Source of the DNA: Oscillibacter ruminantium GH1
GTDB lineage: Bacteria; Bacillota; Clostridia; Oscillospirales; Oscillospiraceae
Assembly (NCBI RefSeq): GCF_000307265.1
Contig: NZ_DF158898.1
Coordinates: forward strand, 329,719-393,718
Length of the DNA: 64,000 nt
Direction: 5' to 3'
The notes beneath the pieces are model-generated. The model saw only the letters and a program-made list of their open reading frames with translations, had not been told where the DNA came from and did no database searches. Positions 2,245 to 53,594 of the stretch are shown one piece after another (positions within the stretch are counted from its first letter, which is position 1; every line of letters begins with the position of its first letter). Both the position numbers and the translations under genes were made by a program.

Positions 2245-3642
2245 ATGAAGGCAAAAACAACTTTTTACTGCACGGAGTGCGGAAATGAAACACCAAAGTG
2301 GGCGGGAAAGTGTCCGGCTTGCGGCGCGTGGAACACGGTGGTAGAGCGTCCGGCGGAAGCCGCGCCAAAAAAGTCCCGGGGACTGGGGAAGGCAGCGGCG
2401 ACCGCCGCCATTTCCTCTGCGGGCAATTCTCACCGTGCCCGCCCGGTCACGGACTTGGAAACTGCGTCCGAAATCCGGTTTCCCACTGGAATGGGAGAAC
2501 TGGATCGGGTTCTGGGCGGGGGAGCGGTCAAAGGGTCGCTGGTATTGGTGGGCGGCGCGCCCGGCATTGGAAAGTCCACGCTAATGCTGCAAATTTGCAG
2601 CAAGCTGTGTGAGTTTTCCAAGGTGCTGTATGTATCCGGCGAGGAATCGGAACACCAGCTTAAGCTCCGAGCCAAGCGGTTGGACGTGGAAAGCGAACAA
2701 CTGTTCGTGATCTCTGAGACTTGTCTGGGAGACGTTTTGGAGACTGTGGCGGAGGAACAGCCGGATATTCTTATCATCGATTCCATCCAGACCCTTTACA
2801 ACGACGCGTTGGAATCTCCCGCCGGAAGCGTGGGGCAGGTGAAAGACTGCACCATGGCGCTGATGCAGCTGGCTAAAGGGCGGGAGATCACCGTGTTCGT
2901 TATCGGCCACGTTAATAAGGAGGGATCTATCGCAGGACCCAAGGTTCTCGAACATATGGTCGATTGTGTGCTATACTTCGAAGGCGACCAGCACAGTTCC
3001 TACCGCATTTTGCGGGCGGCGAAAAACCGTTTTGGTGCTACCAACGAGATCGGTGTCTTCGAGATGGAGGACGCGGGACTGCATGAGGTGGAGAACCCCT
3101 CGGAAATGCTGCTGGCGGGCCGTCCGGCGGATGCGCCGGGAACCTGCGTCACCTGTGTGATGGAGGGGGTTCGTCCGGTGCTGGCAGAGATTCAGGCCCT
3201 GATCGCTCCCAGCAGCTACGGCACACCCCGCCGTACCAGTAATGGTTTTGATTACAACCGGGCGGCTATGCTGCTCGCAGTGCTGGAAAAGCGGGGCGGG
3301 CTGAAGCTCTCCACCTGCGACACGTATCTGAACATCATTGGCGGACTGTCGCTGGACGAGCCTGCCGCTGATTTGGCCGCCGCAGTGGCACTGGCATCCA
3401 GTTATTTGGACCAGCCGATCCCAAGCGATCTGGTGGCCATCGGGGAGGTGGGGCTGACGGGGGAACTGCGCAGCGTCAACCAGCTTGGCCAGCGGGTGAA
3501 CGAGGTGCAGCGGCTGGGTTTTAAGCGCTGCCTGATTCCTGAGCGCCGTTCTCAGACAATTTCTGCTCCGGTGGGTCTTGAGCTAATTCCGGTGCGGAAT
3601 ATTGGGGAGGCTCTGCGGGCAGTGATGCGCAAACAGGGATGA
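2245..3642 (+). CDS. radA: DNA repair protein RadA
   Basis: RadA is a DnaB-type ATPase that drives branch migration of recombination intermediates. The 465-residue protein has the N-terminal zinc finger (C9, C12, C23, C26), a RecA-like core with Walker A GGAPGIGKS at 103-111, the RadA-specific KNRFG motif, and a C-terminal Lon-protease-like domain. Length is typical. Its ATG touches the cwlD stop. Its 3' end overlaps a convergent small Cys-rich frame on the other strand. Confidence 0.95.
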   Translation: MKAKTTFYCTECGNETPKWAGKCPACGAWNTVVERPAEAAPKKSRGLGKAAATAAISSAGNSHRARPVTDLETASEIRFPTGMGELDRVLGGGAVKGSLVLVGGAPGIGKSTLMLQICSKLCEFSKVLYVSGEESEHQLKLRAKRLDVESEQLFVISETCLGDVLETVAEEQPDILIIDSIQTLYNDALESPAGSVGQVKDCTMALMQLAKGREITVFVIGHVNKEGSIAGPKVLEHMVDCVLYFEGDQHSSYRILRAAKNRFGATNEIGVFEMEDAGLHEVENPSEMLLAGRPADAPGTCVTCVMEGVRPVLAEIQALIAPSSYGTPRRTSNGFDYNRAAMLLAVLEKRGGLKLSTCDTYLNIIGGLSLDEPAADLAAAVALASSYLDQPIPSDLVAIGEVGLTGELRSVNQLGQRVNEVQRLGFKRCLIPERRSQTISAPVGLELIPVRNIGEALRAVMRKQG

Positions 3643-4314: not shown

Positions 4315-4357
4315 ATTTTAAATGCAAGCAAGATTGAACAAAATACCCGTTTTGTTC
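4315..4357 (+). repeat. Left direct repeat (attL-like)
   Basis: This is a 43-bp copy of the repeat at 7039-7081. The first 31 bp differ at one base, four bases then vary, and eight bases match. It contains inverted arms GAACAAAA/TTTTGTTC around a 6-bp spacer TACCCG, the layout of a tyrosine-recombinase core site. Confidence 0.7.
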
Positions 4358-4401
4358 CTTTTCGGCGGATGGATGTTGAGCCGCCGAACCGGGGACAAGC
4401 G

Positions 4402-4466
4402 AAAAAGAAAGCGCCCAGAGGCCAAAGCCTCTGGACGCTTTCAAGCTAACTTTCGTTAACCCTGCA
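4402..4466 (-). ncRNA. Candidate 65-nt small RNA at the left end of the element
   Basis: A strong minus-strand promoter (4473-4501) is followed within about 25 bases by a 16-position terminator stem (4407-4422 with 4427-4442, one mismatch) and a five-T tract (4402-4406). There is no room for a gene, so the product would be a short RNA. A copy-control role is possible but not shown. Confidence 0.45.
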
Positions 4467-4472
4467 TTAAGT

Positions 4473-4501
4473 ATAATAGCACCGTCCCATTGGTTTGTCA
4501 A
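4473..4501 (-). promoter_or_regulatory. Strong outward-facing promoter, left end
   Basis: TTGACA (4496-4501) and TATTAT (4473-4478) on the minus strand are 17 bp apart. It points out of the element, toward the left repeat. Confidence 0.6.
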
Positions 4502-5200
4502 GCCCTCGTCCGCCGCAGCGCGTAAACCCTGCGCTTCCCCCACCCCCACAGGGGGAGGGGGACGGGAGGGGGAGAGGGGGAAAAAGCCCCGGGGCGCGAT
4601 TGCTTCATGGGGCGCGGAGCGCCACCCGACCAAGCCCACGGGGCGGAGGCGGGGCGGCTCTTGGGGCGACTGGGGGGACCCGCCGGGTAGCGCCGCGCAG
4701 CGGCGCGGACAACGCTAACACCACAGAACCCGCCGTGGGGCAAGGACGCGGAACGCGCCCGGCTCGACCCTTGCCCCACGGCGTGGCTCTGTGGTATGGG
4801 GGCGGGGGGCTGTCGCCCAACCGCCCCACCGGGCGGCGCGCGCAAGGGCGGCAAGGCCACGAACCGCCGCCCCAGCCGCCACCACGCCGCCACACACAGC
4901 CAGACCAAGGACGGCGGGGCTGGCGGGGCGAGGCCGCAGTCCGCCCGCAGACGCAAAAAGGGTCGCGGGCAGGCTTGCCCGCGACCGCGCCGCATACCGC
5001 AGCTGCCACGGCCCGTAGGACGGGGCAAGCGGACGGGAAGCCCCCCGACGGCCCGCAGGACGGAGCGGGGGCAGGGGCCCGAACGCATCCCTTCGGGGTG
5101 TGGGGCCGCAGCCCCACACGTGGCGGCTACGCCGCCACGGCCCCGCCACAGCGGGGCAGGGCGCGCAGCGCCCGGAAGCCCCCCGGTAGACCGCCGGGCC
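4502..5200. repeat. GC-rich hairpin array without a credible gene
   Basis: This roughly 700-bp stretch is extremely GC-rich and packed with perfect inverted repeats: 4690-4706 (7 bp, GCA loop), 4732-4745 with 4769-4782 (14 bp) inside an outer 8-bp pair 4720-4727/4788-4795, 4961-4986 (11 bp), 5098-5119 (9 bp), 5120-5138 (8 bp, TAC loop), 5140-5157 (7 bp) and 5159-5173 (6 bp, GCA loop). Long open frames cross it on both strands, but they are low-complexity Pro/Arg/Gly/Ala products of base composition with no ribosome site. It may form a structured RNA or a single-strand origin. Confidence 0.7.
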
Positions 5201-5204
5201 TCAT

Positions 5205-5241
5205 ACTTGATATAGGGACAGTATTCCGTCAGAAGCGACGG
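5205..5241 (+). other. Candidate double-strand origin (nick site)
   Basis: ACTTGATAT at 5205-5213 matches the CTTG/ATA cleavage core used by phiX174 gpA and pC194-type initiators. The inferred nick would fall between 5209 and 5210. It is flanked by hairpin-forming sequence, including CCGTC/GACGG at 5226-5241, and lies about 80 bp upstream of the initiator gene, a common origin position in such replicons. Confidence 0.5.
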
Positions 5242-5287
5242 GTAGACTGTACCACCTGAAAGTTCCTCGTCCCTTGCCGCGCAAGGT

Positions 5288-6175
5288 ATGACACCATCTC
5301 AAAACCAAATTTACCACAATTGTCGAATCAAGACCTATCCCGACGGAACGTCGGAGGTCTTGTGCTGCAATCGCCAGCTTTTTCGGGAACCCGGCTGGGA
5401 GGCACAACGGCGCGAACCGCGCCCGCTGCCGTCCGGTGCAGAGCCGGACGAGGCCGACAACCTTGACCGCGCCATGAGGCGCGCCTGCTCTGCCGTCCAC
5501 GACATTGCCATGTCCAACGATTGGGCATGGTTCGTGACCCTGACGCTGGACGCGCGGCAGGTAGACCGCTACGACATGACCGCCATTACCCGGAAGATGA
5601 ATAACTGGCTGGACAACCACGTCCGGCGGCACGGCCTTGCCTACGTCCTTGTGCCGGAGCGGCACAAGGATGGAGCCGTCCACTTCCACGGCTTCTTTAA
5701 CGACGCTCTGAGGGCCGTTGACAGCCGTCACAAGGATGGACACGGTCACAGGGTCTATAATCTGCCACAATGGACGCTAGGCTTTACTACGGCTATCGCG
5801 CTGTACGGCAACAAGCAGTCCGCCGTCGGCTATGTGTGTAAGTACGTCAGCAAGCAGCGGGAGAAGATAGGCGGGCGCTGGTACTACTCCGGCGGCGCGC
5901 TGCGTAAGCCGGAAATCCAGCTGACCGACGCGAATATCGAAGACATGGAAGCCGCACCGGAGGCCCGCCGCTTCGAGGTTCCCCAGCTGCCAAACATCCG
6001 CTTTGCGGCGTTGACATCACAGGGTTTCTGTGATGTCAACCAGCCGCCCGCGAAAATTTGCGAAAACGGGGACGGGTTGACATTTTTTGGACTGTCCACC
6101 GCCGCCGCCGCGCCGCCCGCCCCAGCGGCTCCCGTCCACGGGGCCAAAAAAATGACCCCAAAAAAATTGACATAG
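5288..6175 (+). CDS. HUH rolling-circle replication initiator (Rep)
   Basis: Rep nicks one strand at the origin and stays covalently bound through a tyrosine. The 295-residue protein shows the three HUH motifs: FVTLTLD (82-88), the metal site HFH (132-134), and YVCKYVSK with Y182 and Y186. The YxxxY spacing is that of superfamily I initiators such as phiX174 gpA. The C-terminus is Ala/Pro-rich. No clear ribosome site precedes the ATG; a 6-bp CCTTGC/GCAAGG hairpin abuts it, so translation may be restrained or the start may lie elsewhere. The recombinase gene follows after 12 bp. Confidence 0.8.
   Translation: MTPSQNQIYHNCRIKTYPDGTSEVLCCNRQLFREPGWEAQRREPRPLPSGAEPDEADNLDRAMRRACSAVHDIAMSNDWAWFVTLTLDARQVDRYDMTAITRKMNNWLDNHVRRHGLAYVLVPERHKDGAVHFHGFFNDALRAVDSRHKDGHGHRVYNLPQWTLGFTTAIALYGNKQSAVGYVCKYVSKQREKIGGRWYYSGGALRKPEIQLTDANIEDMEAAPEARRFEVPQLPNIRFAALTSQGFCDVNQPPAKICENGDGLTFFGLSTAAAAPPAPAAPVHGAKKMTPKKLT
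6010..6040. repeat. 13-bp perfect inverted repeat inside rep
   Basis: Arms 6010-6022 and 6028-6040 are perfectly complementary with a 5-base loop, and each carries TTGACATCACAG or its complement. Further TTGACA copies lie at 6077, 6167 and 6714. Possible roles are a binding site for Rep or the recombinase, or a local promoter. Confidence 0.55.
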
Positions 6176-6187
6176 GAGGACGCAAAA

Positions 6188-6724
6188 TTGACCACAGAAT
6201 ATCTGCTGCACGAACAGGTAAACCATGTTTTGTCCGCGCTTACGAAGCAAAACGCGCTCATCATTCAGACCGTTTTACATACCGGGCTGCGCATTTCCGA
6301 CGTGCTGGAACTACACACAGAGGACTTGAAGCCCAGCATGTGGGTGGTGGAAAAGAAGACGGGGAAGCGCCACCGCTGCGGCCTGACAAAGCCGCTTCTG
6401 GAAGCCGTCCGGCAGCAAGCCGGGCCTGTGTGGGCGTTTCCCGGCGCGAAGCCGGGAAATCACAAGACCAGACAGGCTGTCTGGAAGGATGTGAAGCGCG
6501 CAGCCAAGGCGTTTCGCCTTGAGCAGAACGTTGCGCCACACAGTTTCCGCAAAATCTACGCCGTGGAACTCATGCAGCGCTACGGCGATATCCGACGTGT
6601 TCAACGGGCCATGGAGCACGCAAGCCCGTCCGTGACGGCGATTTACGTGATGGCTGACGCGCTGCTGTACCGCAAAAACGTCCTCGCCGAGCAGCGGAGA
6701 CGGAAATTTTTGGTTGACAACTGA
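6188..6724 (+). CDS. Minimal tyrosine recombinase of the element
   Basis: This 178-residue protein consists only of the catalytic domain. R35 (TGLRISDV), a Lys near 57-58, HSFR (H118, R121), H144 and nucleophile Y153 are all in place. The usual N-terminal SAM-like DNA-binding domain of 90-120 residues is absent. The TTG start follows AGGAGG with an eight-base spacer. Its position beside rep and between the direct repeats suggests that it integrates and excises the element. How it binds DNA without the arm-binding domain is open. Confidence 0.8.
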   Translation: MTTEYLLHEQVNHVLSALTKQNALIIQTVLHTGLRISDVLELHTEDLKPSMWVVEKKTGKRHRCGLTKPLLEAVRQQAGPVWAFPGAKPGNHKTRQAVWKDVKRAAKAFRLEQNVAPHSFRKIYAVELMQRYGDIRRVQRAMEHASPSVTAIYVMADALLYRKNVLAEQRRRKFLVDN

Positions 6725-6742
6725 TTAGCGCCGTTCTATACT
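6714..6742 (+). promoter_or_regulatory. Strong outward-facing promoter, right end
   Basis: TTGACA (6714-6719) and TATACT (6737-6742) are 17 bp apart. The -35 lies in the last codons of the recombinase gene. The promoter points toward the right repeat. Confidence 0.6.
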
Positions 6743-6743
6743 T

Positions 6744-6786
6744 GTGTCAAAACAACCCTGCACAGGAATGAGGGCTGTTTTGACAC
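6744..6786 (+). repeat. 16-bp hairpin just after the recombinase
   Basis: Arms 6744-6759 and 6771-6786 (GTGTCAAAACA and its complement) pair with one G-U. There is no T tract, so it is more likely an operator or the 5' hairpin of the transcript from the 6714 promoter than a terminator. Confidence 0.55.
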
Positions 6787-7044
6787 GGTCAATACGGCGC
6801 GGAAGGAGGGAGGCAAGCTAGGTTCGGCGACGGAAAAGGTTCATGCCATCGGTTGCCGGAACGGAACAATAACGTTTATTTTGTTGCCCGGAGCGGTCAC
6901 GGCCCAAGCGCGGCGCGGGGCGCGCTCCCGATGCGCTGCTACGACACGCAGCGCGCGCAGCCCGGCGGAACGCCGGGGCGGAGGGCGAACAATCTTGTCT
7001 GCTACAAGGATACTCCGTGACCCCACAGGGGAACGGAGATTTTA
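6749..7044 (+). ncRNA. Candidate 0.3-kb structured RNA at the right end
   Basis: The transcript from the 6714-6742 promoter would start near 6749, inside the 16-bp hairpin. It would cross further stems (GCGCTGC/GCAGCGC, CCCGGCG/CGCCGGG) and end at a CTCCGT/ACGGAG hairpin (7013-7038) followed by ATTTT. The only frame with a plausible start has 9 codons (6843). I infer a non-coding RNA and recognise no known class. Confidence 0.35.
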
Positions 7045-7081
7045 AATGCAGGCAAGATTGAACAAAATAAAAATTTTGTTC
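7039..7081 (+). repeat. Right direct repeat (attR-like)
   Basis: This is the partner of 4315-4357. The inverted arms GAACAAAA/TTTTGTTC enclose TAAAAA here instead of TACCCG. Confidence 0.7.
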
Positions 7082-7470
7082 AAAGTGGGGTAGACCAGTT
7101 CCCCGAAATGGCCGTTTTTGGCCGTTTTTCCGCCTATGTACAGCCAAGTGCTTGTTGCCATGACAATCTTAAGGCTCTGTACGTTTTTTATAATGCTCTT
7201 CATTTACAGATTCTGTTCTGCATCTTTTGTCGGCATTGATTTTGTCTAGTGATCCCAGTGCGAAAATTTCACCATAAGTATTTTACGCGCGGATCGGCCG
7301 TATCTACTGTGGGCTTTGGCACTTTTGCGTCAGACACAGCTTTGCAATCTACTCCGCAGACCGGTTTCCAGCGATTTAAACACCTCCTTATGATGACTTC
7401 TCTGATTGCAGCCCGCTCCAGCAGCTGAAATTTTTCCATGTGAAATTGTAAAACGATTGCAGGTGATTTT
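7082..7470. other. Intergenic stretch without a recognisable gene
   Basis: No frame with a ribosome site and credible composition is seen on either strand. The last bases carry AGGTGA for the recombinase that follows. Confidence 0.5.
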
Positions 7471-8484
7471 TTGAACGATTATCGTACCGAAGCGCCACCA
7501 GTCCTGCGGGATTTTTTGGCGTACCACGAGACGATCAAAGCCCACTCCAAGCGGACTGTGGACGAATATTTTTTGGATCTGCGGAACTTTTTTCGCTACA
7601 TAAAGCAGGTTCGTGACCCATCGTTAAAGGACAAGCGTCTTGACGAAATCTCTATCTTGGACGTGGATCTTGACTTTGTTAAATCTGTAACACTTACGGA
7701 TGTTTACGGCTATATGACCTATCTCAGCCGCGACCGTGTACAGCATCAGAACAGCTCTGCATCTGATTATGGACTGAACGCTGCGTCCAGAGCGCGAAAA
7801 ATTGCGACTTTGCGTTCCTTTTATAACTATCTAACGAATAAAGTCCATTTGATCTCCGAAAACCCCGTGAAGGACATTGACTCCCCAAAAACCATGAAAA
7901 CATTACCCAAATATCTGACCTTAGACGAAAGTATCCAGCTTTTAGACTCTGTGGATGGCAAAAACCGGGAGCGCGACTACTGCATTCTGACGCTGTTTCT
8001 CAACTGCGGCCTGCGAATTTCAGAGCTGGTAGGGCTGGATTTAAACGACATCCAAGACGAGGCGCTCCGAATTCTCGGTAAGGGCAACAAAGTCCGCATC
8101 GTCTACCTGAACGATGCCTGCAAGGATGCCCTGCGCCAATATAAAGCTGTGCGGCAGCCCATCGTGGGCCGGGATCAGAACGCTCTTTTCTTGTCAGCGC
8201 AAAACAAACGCATCAGCCGATCCGGTGTTCACGCGCTCGTGAAAAAACATCTGGGTGATGCCGGTCTGGATGCGACGGAATACTCCGCGCACAAACTCCG
8301 CCACACCGCCGCCACACTGATGCTCCAAAACGGTGTGGATGTGAAAGCCGTGCAGGAGGTTTTAGGCCACGATCATTTGAATACTACCGAAATTTACACC
8401 CATATCGACAACGATGCCCTCCGCGTTGCCGCAAAGGCAAATCCCTTGTCACACGTTAAGCATCAACGGAAACAGGATTCTTGA
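7471..8484 (+). CDS. Chromosomal Xer-like tyrosine recombinase
   Basis: This 337-residue recombinase has an N-terminal core-binding domain (about 10-125) and a complete catalytic domain: R182 (CGLRISEL), K204 or K207, H274 and R277 (HKLRHTA), H300 and Y309. It is longer than typical XerC/XerD (about 295) and closer to single-recombinase XerS/XerH types, so chromosome dimer resolution is plausible but not proven. The TTG start follows AGGTGA. Codon use resembles core genes more than the element on its left. I saw no clear dif site nearby. Confidence 0.8.
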   Translation: MNDYRTEAPPVLRDFLAYHETIKAHSKRTVDEYFLDLRNFFRYIKQVRDPSLKDKRLDEISILDVDLDFVKSVTLTDVYGYMTYLSRDRVQHQNSSASDYGLNAASRARKIATLRSFYNYLTNKVHLISENPVKDIDSPKTMKTLPKYLTLDESIQLLDSVDGKNRERDYCILTLFLNCGLRISELVGLDLNDIQDEALRILGKGNKVRIVYLNDACKDALRQYKAVRQPIVGRDQNALFLSAQNKRISRSGVHALVKKHLGDAGLDATEYSAHKLRHTAATLMLQNGVDVKAVQEVLGHDHLNTTEIYTHIDNDALRVAAKANPLSHVKHQRKQDS

Positions 8485-52886: not shown

Positions 52887-53594
52887 TTATTCGCCCAGCA
52901 GTGCAGTCAGTTCCGCCGCCGTCAGATGCCGCCACTTCCCTACCGGCAGGTCCCCCAGTTCCAGCGTGTGCTCCCGCACCCGCCGCAGGCGGCGGACTGT
53001 AAGACCGCAGGCGGCGCACATACGCCGAATCTGACGGTTCTTTCCCTCGTGGATGACCACGGATAGCCGAGCGCGATCCGCTGCCTTAGAAATCACTTCT
53101 ACCGTTGCTTGATGGATTGCTTCTCCATCAAGTTCTGTGATGGAAGATAGCTTGACAGCGGAATCCGCTTGGAAACCGTTCACATCCACCTGATAGGTCT
53201 TGTCAATCTGAAAGCTGGGATGGATCAGCCGCTGCATCAGTTCCCCATCGTTGGTCAGCAGAAGCAGCCCCTCCGAATCCATGTCCAACCGCCCCACAGG
53301 AAAAACCCGGGTCCCTGCATCCCGCACCAGTTCCGCTACCGTGGGACGGCCCTTTTCGTCGGAAAGCGTGGTCACATATCCCCGAGGCTTATTCAACAAA
53401 ATATAGGTTTTGTTCTCTTTTTTCCGGAGCGGCACACCGTCCACCTGCACATCGTCCCGGTCCGGATCGGCCCTGTCTCCGATTTGGGCCGTGCGGCCAT
53501 TGACACGCACCCGTCCTGCCGCCAGCCAATCCTCCGCTGTGCGGCGGGAACATAGGCCCGCGGCGCTCAACAACTTTTGTAATCGTTCTTCCAA
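52887..53594 (-). CDS. rluB: RluB-family rRNA pseudouridine synthase
   Basis: The 235-residue enzyme has an N-terminal S4 domain (ERLQKLLSAAGLCSRRTAE) and the catalytic Asp in GRLDMDSEGLLLLTND. The KNRQIRRM motif is present. It uses a TTG start at 53594 with GGAGG eight bases upstream. It is last in the S2P-scp-dacF-rluB cluster. Confidence 0.92.
   Translation of the reverse strand: MEERLQKLLSAAGLCSRRTAEDWLAAGRVRVNGRTAQIGDRADPDRDDVQVDGVPLRKKENKTYILLNKPRGYVTTLSDEKGRPTVAELVRDAGTRVFPVGRLDMDSEGLLLLTNDGELMQRLIHPSFQIDKTYQVDVNGFQADSAVKLSSITELDGEAIHQATVEVISKAADRARLSVVIHEGKNRQIRRMCAACGLTVRRLRRVREHTLELGDLPVGKWRHLTAAELTALLGE

What the first reader, a model, noticed from the sequence alone, without database searches (positions are those of the whole stretch)
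4315..7081. Compact element pairing a phiX174-type initiator with a one-domain tyrosine recombinase
Direct repeats bound a 2.77-kb unit holding only a HUH Rep (HFH 132-134; Y182 and Y186) and a 178-residue recombinase that keeps R, K, H-x-x-R, H and Y but has no N-terminal binding domain. There are no capsid, relaxase or cargo genes. It may be a minimal integrating replicon or a satellite that borrows a helper's packaging, and I know of no named family with this exact content.
Basis: partly seen in the sequence, partly recalled or inferred. Interest (0 to 1): 0.8.

Follow-up and report, generated by a model that had tools for sequence, protein, structure and literature searches.

The report
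Two-gene element inserted at chromosome terminus
A tiny mobile DNA element with only two genes, one to copy itself and one to cut and join DNA, sits in the site where a gut bacterium resolves its finished chromosomes; at least eleven relatives exist, and one group of copies lies in a row with a filamentous virus that may carry it.

Summary
The direct repeats are dif half-sites: window 7058-7083 (TTGAACAAAATAAAAATTTTGTTCAA) is a palindrome found in 64 of 86 same-genus genomes (up to 3 mismatches), just upstream of xerC in 29 of 30 loci checked, and GC skew reverses there. The element has inserted into the host's presumed chromosome-dimer-resolution site between radA and xerC. The pair Rep (PF23343, inovirus G2P type) plus one-domain tyrosine recombinase was found in 12 genomes; 8 of 12 lie beside xerC at intact dif, 3 more show radA, dif-like or skew evidence, 1 has no flanks. 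All 12 have a conserved motif upstream of rep; in 11 it holds the phiX174 nick core ACTTG/ATA. One tandem array abuts an inovirus at dif, like RS1/TLC-CTXphi. The Reps form one clade among inovirus Reps. Best reading: a minimal dif-integrating rolling-circle replicon of inovirus descent that works like an IMEX but carries its own mini-Xer. Packaging by an inovirus helper is plausible but unproven: only 3 of 12 carriers have a detected Zot gene, and no shared sequence was found. The recombinase's role (integrase, Xer partner, resolvase, relaxase) is open.

The parts
2245..3642 (+). radA (chromosomal left neighbour of the dif locus)
   Evidence: ORF; homologues on the other side of dif from xerC in 17 of 30 genus loci
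4334..4359 (+). attL: dif left half plus divergent right half (TTGAACAAAATACCCGTTTTGTTCCT)
4346..7069 (+). inserted element, about 2.72 kb (ends approximate within the core)
   Evidence: attL/attR comparison with other carriers and empty loci
5204..5231 (+). putative double-strand origin TACTTGATATAGGGACAGTATTCCGTCA, holding the phiX174-type nick core ACTTG/ATAT
   Evidence: close matches upstream of rep in 11 of 12 family members and a one-base variant of the core in the twelfth, G136; phiX174 origin checked at NC_001422 4306
5288..6175 (+). rep, HUH rolling-circle initiator, 295 aa, PF23343 REP_ORF2-G2P
6188..6724 (+). one-domain tyrosine recombinase (mini-Rec), 178 aa, Phage_integrase catalytic domain only
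6744..6786 (+). 16-bp inverted repeat after rec, possible terminator (function inferred)
   Evidence: I5
7058..7083 (+). attR = intact dif-like palindrome TTGAACAAAATAAAAATTTTGTTCAA
   Evidence: 64 of 86 genus genomes hold the pattern with up to 3 mismatches; GC skew flips here
7471..8484 (+). host xerC-like recombinase, 337 aa, next to dif

Best explanation
A two-gene, dif-integrating rolling-circle replicon of inovirus descent. Shown: it lies inside a dif-like site at the skew switch (replication terminus), with one intact site beside xerC and one imperfect copy at the far end; its attachment site keeps the left half of the host's own dif and a divergent right half; it carries an inovirus-type Rep, a conserved phiX-like nick motif and a one-domain tyrosine recombinase with all catalytic residues; it belongs to a family with single and tandem insertions at dif. 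Inferred: Rep nicks ACTTG/ATAT and makes circles and ssDNA from the insertion or from tandem copies; the circle re-enters dif by recombination begun at the shared left arm, by host XerC together with the element's mini-Rec; spread between cells uses inovirus virions where a helper is present (unproven, about 0.45).
For: dif identity: palindrome in 64 of 86 genus genomes (39 of 42 good ones), one match in 44 of the 64, reversed control 0 in the rows shown; just upstream of xerC in 29 of 30 loci; skew positive in 10 of 10 sampled 20-kb blocks before and negative in 10 of 10 after it in G001, 10 of 10 (two of them overlapping) and 4 of 4 in G000. Same place in other carriers: 8 of 12 beside xerC with intact dif. 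The element's left arm follows the host genus's dif arm (TTGAACAAAAT, CTCAACAAAAT, CGCAACAAAAT). mini-Rec in 12 of 12, Zot inside the element in 0 of 12; 10 of 10 virus contigs with this Rep have Zot and none a mini-Rec at E < 1e-40. Reps one clade, 98/91, among inovirus Reps. Nick motif 11 of 12, variant in the twelfth. Element-element-inovirus array at dif in G086. Inovirus-like prophages at the same dif in G047 and G033.
Against: No circular form or recombination product of the window element was seen; no reads were available. Inovirus-like prophages at dif in G047 and G033 have no mini-Rec match, so host Xer may suffice and mini-Rec may do something else. Zot is found in only 3 of 12 carriers (G000, G073, G086): genus 2 of 5 against 5 of 81 (p 0.051), family sample 1 of 7 against 16 of 293 (p 0.34). 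No nucleotide match between 6 elements and 6 inoviruses at E 0.01. Mini-Rec also lives on small plasmids with unrelated Reps. The tree's letter make-up is uneven for 7 rows, 4 of them element Reps.
Confidence: 0.8

Rival explanations
1. It is a true inovirus satellite, as RS1 or TLC is to its helper: replicated by its own Rep, packaged and exported by the coat, Zot and exit proteins of a filamentous helper that shares dif.
For: G086 array of two elements (plus a tail piece behind an assembly gap) directly abutting an inovirus, ending in a dif palindrome at the skew switch; Rep clade nested among inovirus Reps; an inovirus in the window's own genome about 72 kb away and three Zot matches in G073; L178, a viral contig with mini-Rec beside inovirus genes.
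Against: 9 of 12 carriers have no Zot match (several are fragmentary genomes); no shared sequence with inoviruses; sharing dif could explain adjacency by itself; the recombinase query against 50,697 phage records gave 39 records, Streptococcus 33, Listeria 4, 'Bacteriophage' 2, all below 60% identity (20 of 39 shown).
Confidence: 0.45
2. It is an integrative plasmid: a self-sufficient rolling-circle plasmid that parks in dif; no phage takes part, and transfer is by transformation or mobilisation.
For: Mini-Rec relatives on seven 2.2-3.8 kb circular plasmids of a rat cecum and on a 3.4-kb contig with 77-bp terminal repeat; initiators of those typed were Rep_1 (L054, L161), RepL (L163) and Rep_OBD (L159); 5 of 9 mini-Rec replicons carry a dif-like core against 0.17 expected.
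Against: The element Reps are a clade next to inovirus Reps and match inoviruses (best E 1e-33) better than plasmids (best E 2e-11).
Confidence: 0.4
3. The one-domain recombinase is not an integrase but a tyrosine-recombinase-like relaxase (MobK/TcpM type) that mobilises the element by conjugation, host Xer alone doing the integration.
For: MobK of the small plasmid pIGRK is a tyrosine-recombinase-like relaxase beside a rep gene (PMC8152469, passages); dif inoviruses have no mini-Rec.
Against: Mini-Rec goes with dif-like sites on replicons with several unrelated Reps; its profile matches phage integrases, XerD, XerA and XerH among solved structures. No oriT was sought.
Confidence: 0.15
4. Mini-Rec is mainly a multimer resolvase acting at the element's dif-like sites, as Xer/cer does for plasmids.
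For: Small circular carriers; an extra dif-like site, attP-like when read on the other strand, 48-185 bp from the right end in 4 of 10 elements (two of the four are near-identical), shuffled mean at most 0.10.
Against: Tandem arrays persist in the chromosomes of G282 and G086.
Confidence: 0.2

Closest known systems
[quoted passage not shown]
   Same: dif-like attP with one conserved arm and one divergent arm; insertion at dif leaves one intact and one altered dif (PMC5357621 and PMC9765430, passages)
   Different: Carries its own tyrosine recombinase; only two genes; in Oscillospiraceae with an xerC-linked dif
RS1 and TLC satellites of CTXphi in Vibrio cholerae
   Same: Rep without coat genes, integration at dif, tandem arrays next to a filamentous prophage
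   Different: No regulator, antirepressor or XafT-like gene; own mini-recombinase; helper packaging not shown; unrelated host (gene content of RS1 and TLC recalled; XafT named)
Inoviridae of gut bacteria (bajarodino and Dulem viruses; Ino-06)
   Same: Same Rep family; related prophages here use dif; Ino-06 carries a tyrosine recombinase after rep (PMC8530359, passages)
   Different: Those carry Zot and coat genes; the element has none
Small circular plasmids of the rat cecum metamobilome (HG796404, 830, 380, 394, 788, 421, 829; PMC3913684, passages)
   Same: 2.2-3.8 kb circles with a one-domain recombinase, 4 of 7 with a dif-like core
   Different: Where typed, Rep_1, RepL or Rep_OBD initiators; no integrated form looked for
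pIGRK (RepR + MobK)
   Same: Small replicon with rep beside a tyrosine-recombinase-like protein
   Different: MobK is a relaxase; its sequence was not compared here (record not held)

Membership tests
IMEX | inserted at chromosomal dif, intact dif kept on one side | tested here: met
IMEX | element carries a dif-like attP | tested here: met
   end sequences of 10 elements, G136 cut by its contig end; no circular attP seen
IMEX | integration catalysed by host Xer | tested here: inconclusive
   element encodes a tyrosine recombinase; inovirus-like prophages at the same dif have no mini-Rec match; catalysis not testable
Filamentous-phage satellite (RS1/TLC kind) | own rolling-circle Rep, no morphogenesis genes | tested here: met
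Filamentous-phage satellite (RS1/TLC kind) | found with a helper inovirus | tested here: inconclusive
   G086 array, G000, G073; no Zot match in 9 of 12 carriers
Filamentous-phage satellite (RS1/TLC kind) | packaging signal shared with helper | tested here: inconclusive
   no hit in 6 x 6 comparison at E 0.01; only 3 pairs share a genome and short signals would be missed
Filamentous-phage satellite (RS1/TLC kind) | transmitted in helper virions | not testable with these tools
   needs virions
Inoviridae | Zot (pI) and coat genes | tested here: not met
   Zot profile: 0 of 12 elements; coat genes not searched by profile
Microviridae | major capsid protein | tested here: not met
   only two genes found; no capsid family matched by either protein
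TR-like Mob (MobK) mobilizable plasmid | relaxase activity and oriT | not testable with these tools
   for the precedent
Integrative and mobilizable element | relaxase of a MOB family | tested here: not met
   no such family matched by the two proteins; a TR-like relaxase is not excluded

The most novel reading that the evidence does not exclude
A family of two-gene inovirus satellites in gut Gram-positive bacteria that share dif with their helpers and carry a stripped-down Xer (mini-Rec) which pairs with host XerC on a hybrid attP: host XerC on the conserved left arm, mini-Rec on the divergent right arm.
Probability: 0.3. Interest if true: 0.82.

Novelty: new variant of a known kind. Interest (0 to 1): 0.64.

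Why it matters
It describes a recurrent minimal element in a common gut family, gives that family's likely dif site with its linked xerC, and suggests that the arrangement of dif, filamentous phage and satellite known from Vibrio has a counterpart in Gram-positive gut bacteria. The mini-Rec makes a direct question testable: can a catalytic-domain-only recombinase act at dif, alone or with host XerC.

Tried and rejected
Close-relative scans of IMG/VR with the single Rep and Rec proteins found none; alignment scans found 9 Rep and 17 Rec loci. In the six-frame search Pfam Zot (PF05707) missed the window genome's own inovirus, though the same protein scores over the cut-off when scanned directly; so an alignment of five Zots was used. 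A two-mismatch look-alike core inside the window at 53394 was set aside as chance. The idea that the motif before rep is a promoter was dropped by reasoning only (hexamer spacing too short). The recombinase tree is weak and unsettled, and its G266 row was cut to 47 aa by a wrong frame; only the grouping of the L054 plasmid recombinase with the four same-genus elements (98/94) is used.

Rows left out: the Rep tree has 39 rows: 7 of the 9 IMG/VR Rep loci (L172, L173 left out), and not the truncated hits of G040 and G041 nor second tandem copies. Of 22 Rep places several are split pieces of one gene. G176, next to the element clade (92/77), has only a weak XerC-like match after rep and was not counted. 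The 300-genome samples share handles but their full lists were not printed; the six family carriers were therefore searched again by handle, 0 of 6 with Zot (the tool warns that an empty answer without a positive control shows little, but the same alignment rang). In one search the 10 virus contigs are 3 named phages and 7 IMG/VR. Distances and sizes of inovirus stretches are approximate.

Papers: search listings; passages of PMC6813254, PMC3913684, PMC9765430, PMC5357621, PMC8530359, PMC8152469. None of the passages seen describes this pair; that is no proof of absence, since most subscription papers and all preprints are missing.
Full report
Observation. The window holds a 43-nt direct repeat (88%) at 4315-4357 and 7039-7081 around two genes on the + strand: rep 5288-6175 and a 178-aa tyrosine recombinase 6188-6724, here called mini-Rec. 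Rep matches Pfam REP_ORF2-G2P (E 5.4e-15) and mini-Rec matches Phage_integrase over residues 5-157.

The site looks like dif. The repeat core at 7058-7083 is the palindrome TTGAACAAAAT-AAAA-ATTTTGTTCAA. A pattern search finds it, with up to 3 mismatches, in 64 of 86 genomes of the genus (39 of 42 good ones), once in 44 of the 64; the reversed pattern gives none in the rows shown. In 29 of the 30 loci fetched it lies just upstream of the same xerC-like gene (not in L083), and in 17 of 30 radA is on the other side in the same 3-kb locus, which is the empty arrangement. GC skew switches sign at it: in G001 10 of 10 sampled blocks before are positive and 10 of 10 after negative; in the window's contig 10 of 10 and 4 of 4. 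A near-palindrome at the terminus, linked to its recombinase gene, is what is known for the single-recombinase difSL/XerS and difH/XerH systems (PMC5357621, passages). That this xerC acts alone, or at this site at all, was not tested.

The insertion. The window element lies between radA and xerC. The right end is an intact dif; the left end keeps TTGAACAAAATA and then diverges (CCCGTTTTGTTCCT). Other carriers show the same: after the left arm G006 has ACGTC, G073 ACGTG and G031 GGGCG, each followed by TTTTGTGCC. In other genera the dif arm differs and the element's left arm differs with it: CTCAACAAAAT in G203 and G266, CGCAACAAAAT in G282. The attachment site is thus a hybrid with one host arm. 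Vibrio TLCphi and the gonococcal island have the same kind of one-armed site (passages).

A family. Twelve genomes carry Rep plus mini-Rec: G000, G006, G031, G073, G066 (same genus; 12 of 86 genomes have some Rep match; 6 of 86 a mini-Rec match, the sixth being G019 with a Rep_1-like initiator), G203, G266, G136, G243, G295, G282 (same family; 14 of 300 genomes have a Rep match at E 1e-35; 7 of the 14, with G000, are carriers) and G086, an Oscillospiraceae MAG (SVOZ01000001). Eight of 12 lie next to xerC with an intact dif between (G000, G006, G031, G073, G203, G266, G295, G282). G136 has radA on one side and its contig ends inside a 35-bp repeat; G243 has a dif-like palindrome after mini-Rec but no xerC match in 9.5 kb; G086 sits at a skew switch with a dif-like palindrome, its best xerC match 83 kb away; G066 is a contig of two head-to-tail copies with no flank, which may be an array or a circle assembled twice. 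Lengths run from 2.5 to 5.0 kb (G243 is cut). G282 and G086 are chromosomal tandem arrays.

Origin motif. TACTTGATAT..GGAC.TATTCCGTCA, with small changes, stands upstream of rep in 11 of 12, and the twelfth, G136, has a diverged form with one base changed in the core. Its start equals the nick-site core of phiX174, checked in NC_001422 at the annotated origin 4306. Related loci L217, L218 and L222 have TACTTGATA before their rep too. That Rep cuts there is inferred.

Link to filamentous phages. The best outside matches of Rep are Inoviridae genomes (bajarodino virus 76, E 1e-33); plasmid matches are weaker (best 2e-11). In a 39-row tree the 12 Reps form one clade (98/91) among Zot-bearing inoviruses (the tool flags uneven letter make-up in 7 rows). 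All 10 virus contigs examined carry Zot and none a close mini-Rec; 12 of 12 elements carry mini-Rec and none has Zot within it. In G086 two full copies and a tail piece behind an assembly gap run straight into an inovirus (Rep, Zot, coat-like and secreted proteins) that ends at a dif palindrome. In G047 and G033 inovirus-like prophages with Zot sit alone at the genus dif, with no mini-Rec match. The Zot-like proteins match PHROG 197 and 1675.

What speaks against a helper. Zot was found in 3 of 12 carriers: 2 of 5 in the genus against 5 of 81 others (p 0.051), 1 of 7 in the family sample against 16 of 293 others (p 0.34), and G086. No nucleotide similarity links six elements to six inoviruses at E 0.01. 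So packaging by inoviruses remains a hypothesis.

The recombinase. Mini-Rec relatives occur on seven small circular plasmids of a rat cecum and on two contigs of this genus (L054, L055). Initiators typed there are Rep_1 (L054, L161), RepL (L163) and Rep_OBD (L159). Five of these nine replicons carry a dif-like core, against 0.17 expected from shuffles; four do not. The L054 recombinase groups with the same-genus elements (98/94), so the gene seems to move between replicon types. It looks like a module linked to dif-like sites rather than to one Rep. Because dif inoviruses do without it, it may help or regulate rather than be required; a relaxase role like MobK (PMC8152469, passages) is not excluded.

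Mechanism, by step. Shown: position in dif, hybrid attachment site, catalytic residues in place, conserved nick-like motif, tandem copies. Inferred: rolling-circle copying by Rep; entry through the shared left arm by XerC with mini-Rec; stability through the imperfect left copy. Unknown: how it moves between cells.

Verdict. A real and recurrent element, not met in the papers searched, and a variant of the known dif-exploiting elements and filamentous satellites. It is not filed as a member of either: the host-Xer feature of IMEX and the packaging feature of satellites are unresolved.

Noticed in passing
G047 L050:8416-14680; G033 L045:3064-9750; G010 L123:9685-17408: Inovirus-like prophages with Zot inserted at the same dif between xerC and radA; no mini-Rec match in G047 and G033.
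   Followed up: partly
L056:5200-12700 (G000:C3 from about 408 kb): An inovirus in the window's own genome, about 72 kb from the element and not at dif, with a 1000-aa secreted protein and a Zot-like ATPase; a transposase-like gene next to it is partly masked.
   Followed up: partly
L054 (G073:C44): 3,373-base contig with a 77-base terminal repeat, so probably a 3,296-bp circle, with Rep_1 and mini-Rec.
   Followed up: partly
L178:601-8850: IMG/VR contig with a mini-Rec gene (43%) next to inovirus genes including Zot, and a 14-base repeat at 1879 and 8846; maybe a second element-inovirus array.
   Followed up: partly
G203, G266, G282, G006 elements, 48-185 bp from right end: An extra dif-like site, attP-like on the other strand, inside 4 of 10 elements near the right end (shuffled mean at most 0.10); a weak look-alike in the window near 6871-6885.
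   Followed up: partly
window 4315-4333 and 7039-7057: 19 bases of near-identity outside the dif core at both ends, not seen in the three other same-genus dif carriers; origin unexplained.
   Followed up: no
G084, G034, G080: Three or four dif-like palindromes per genome (up to 3 mismatches), more than the usual one.
   Followed up: no
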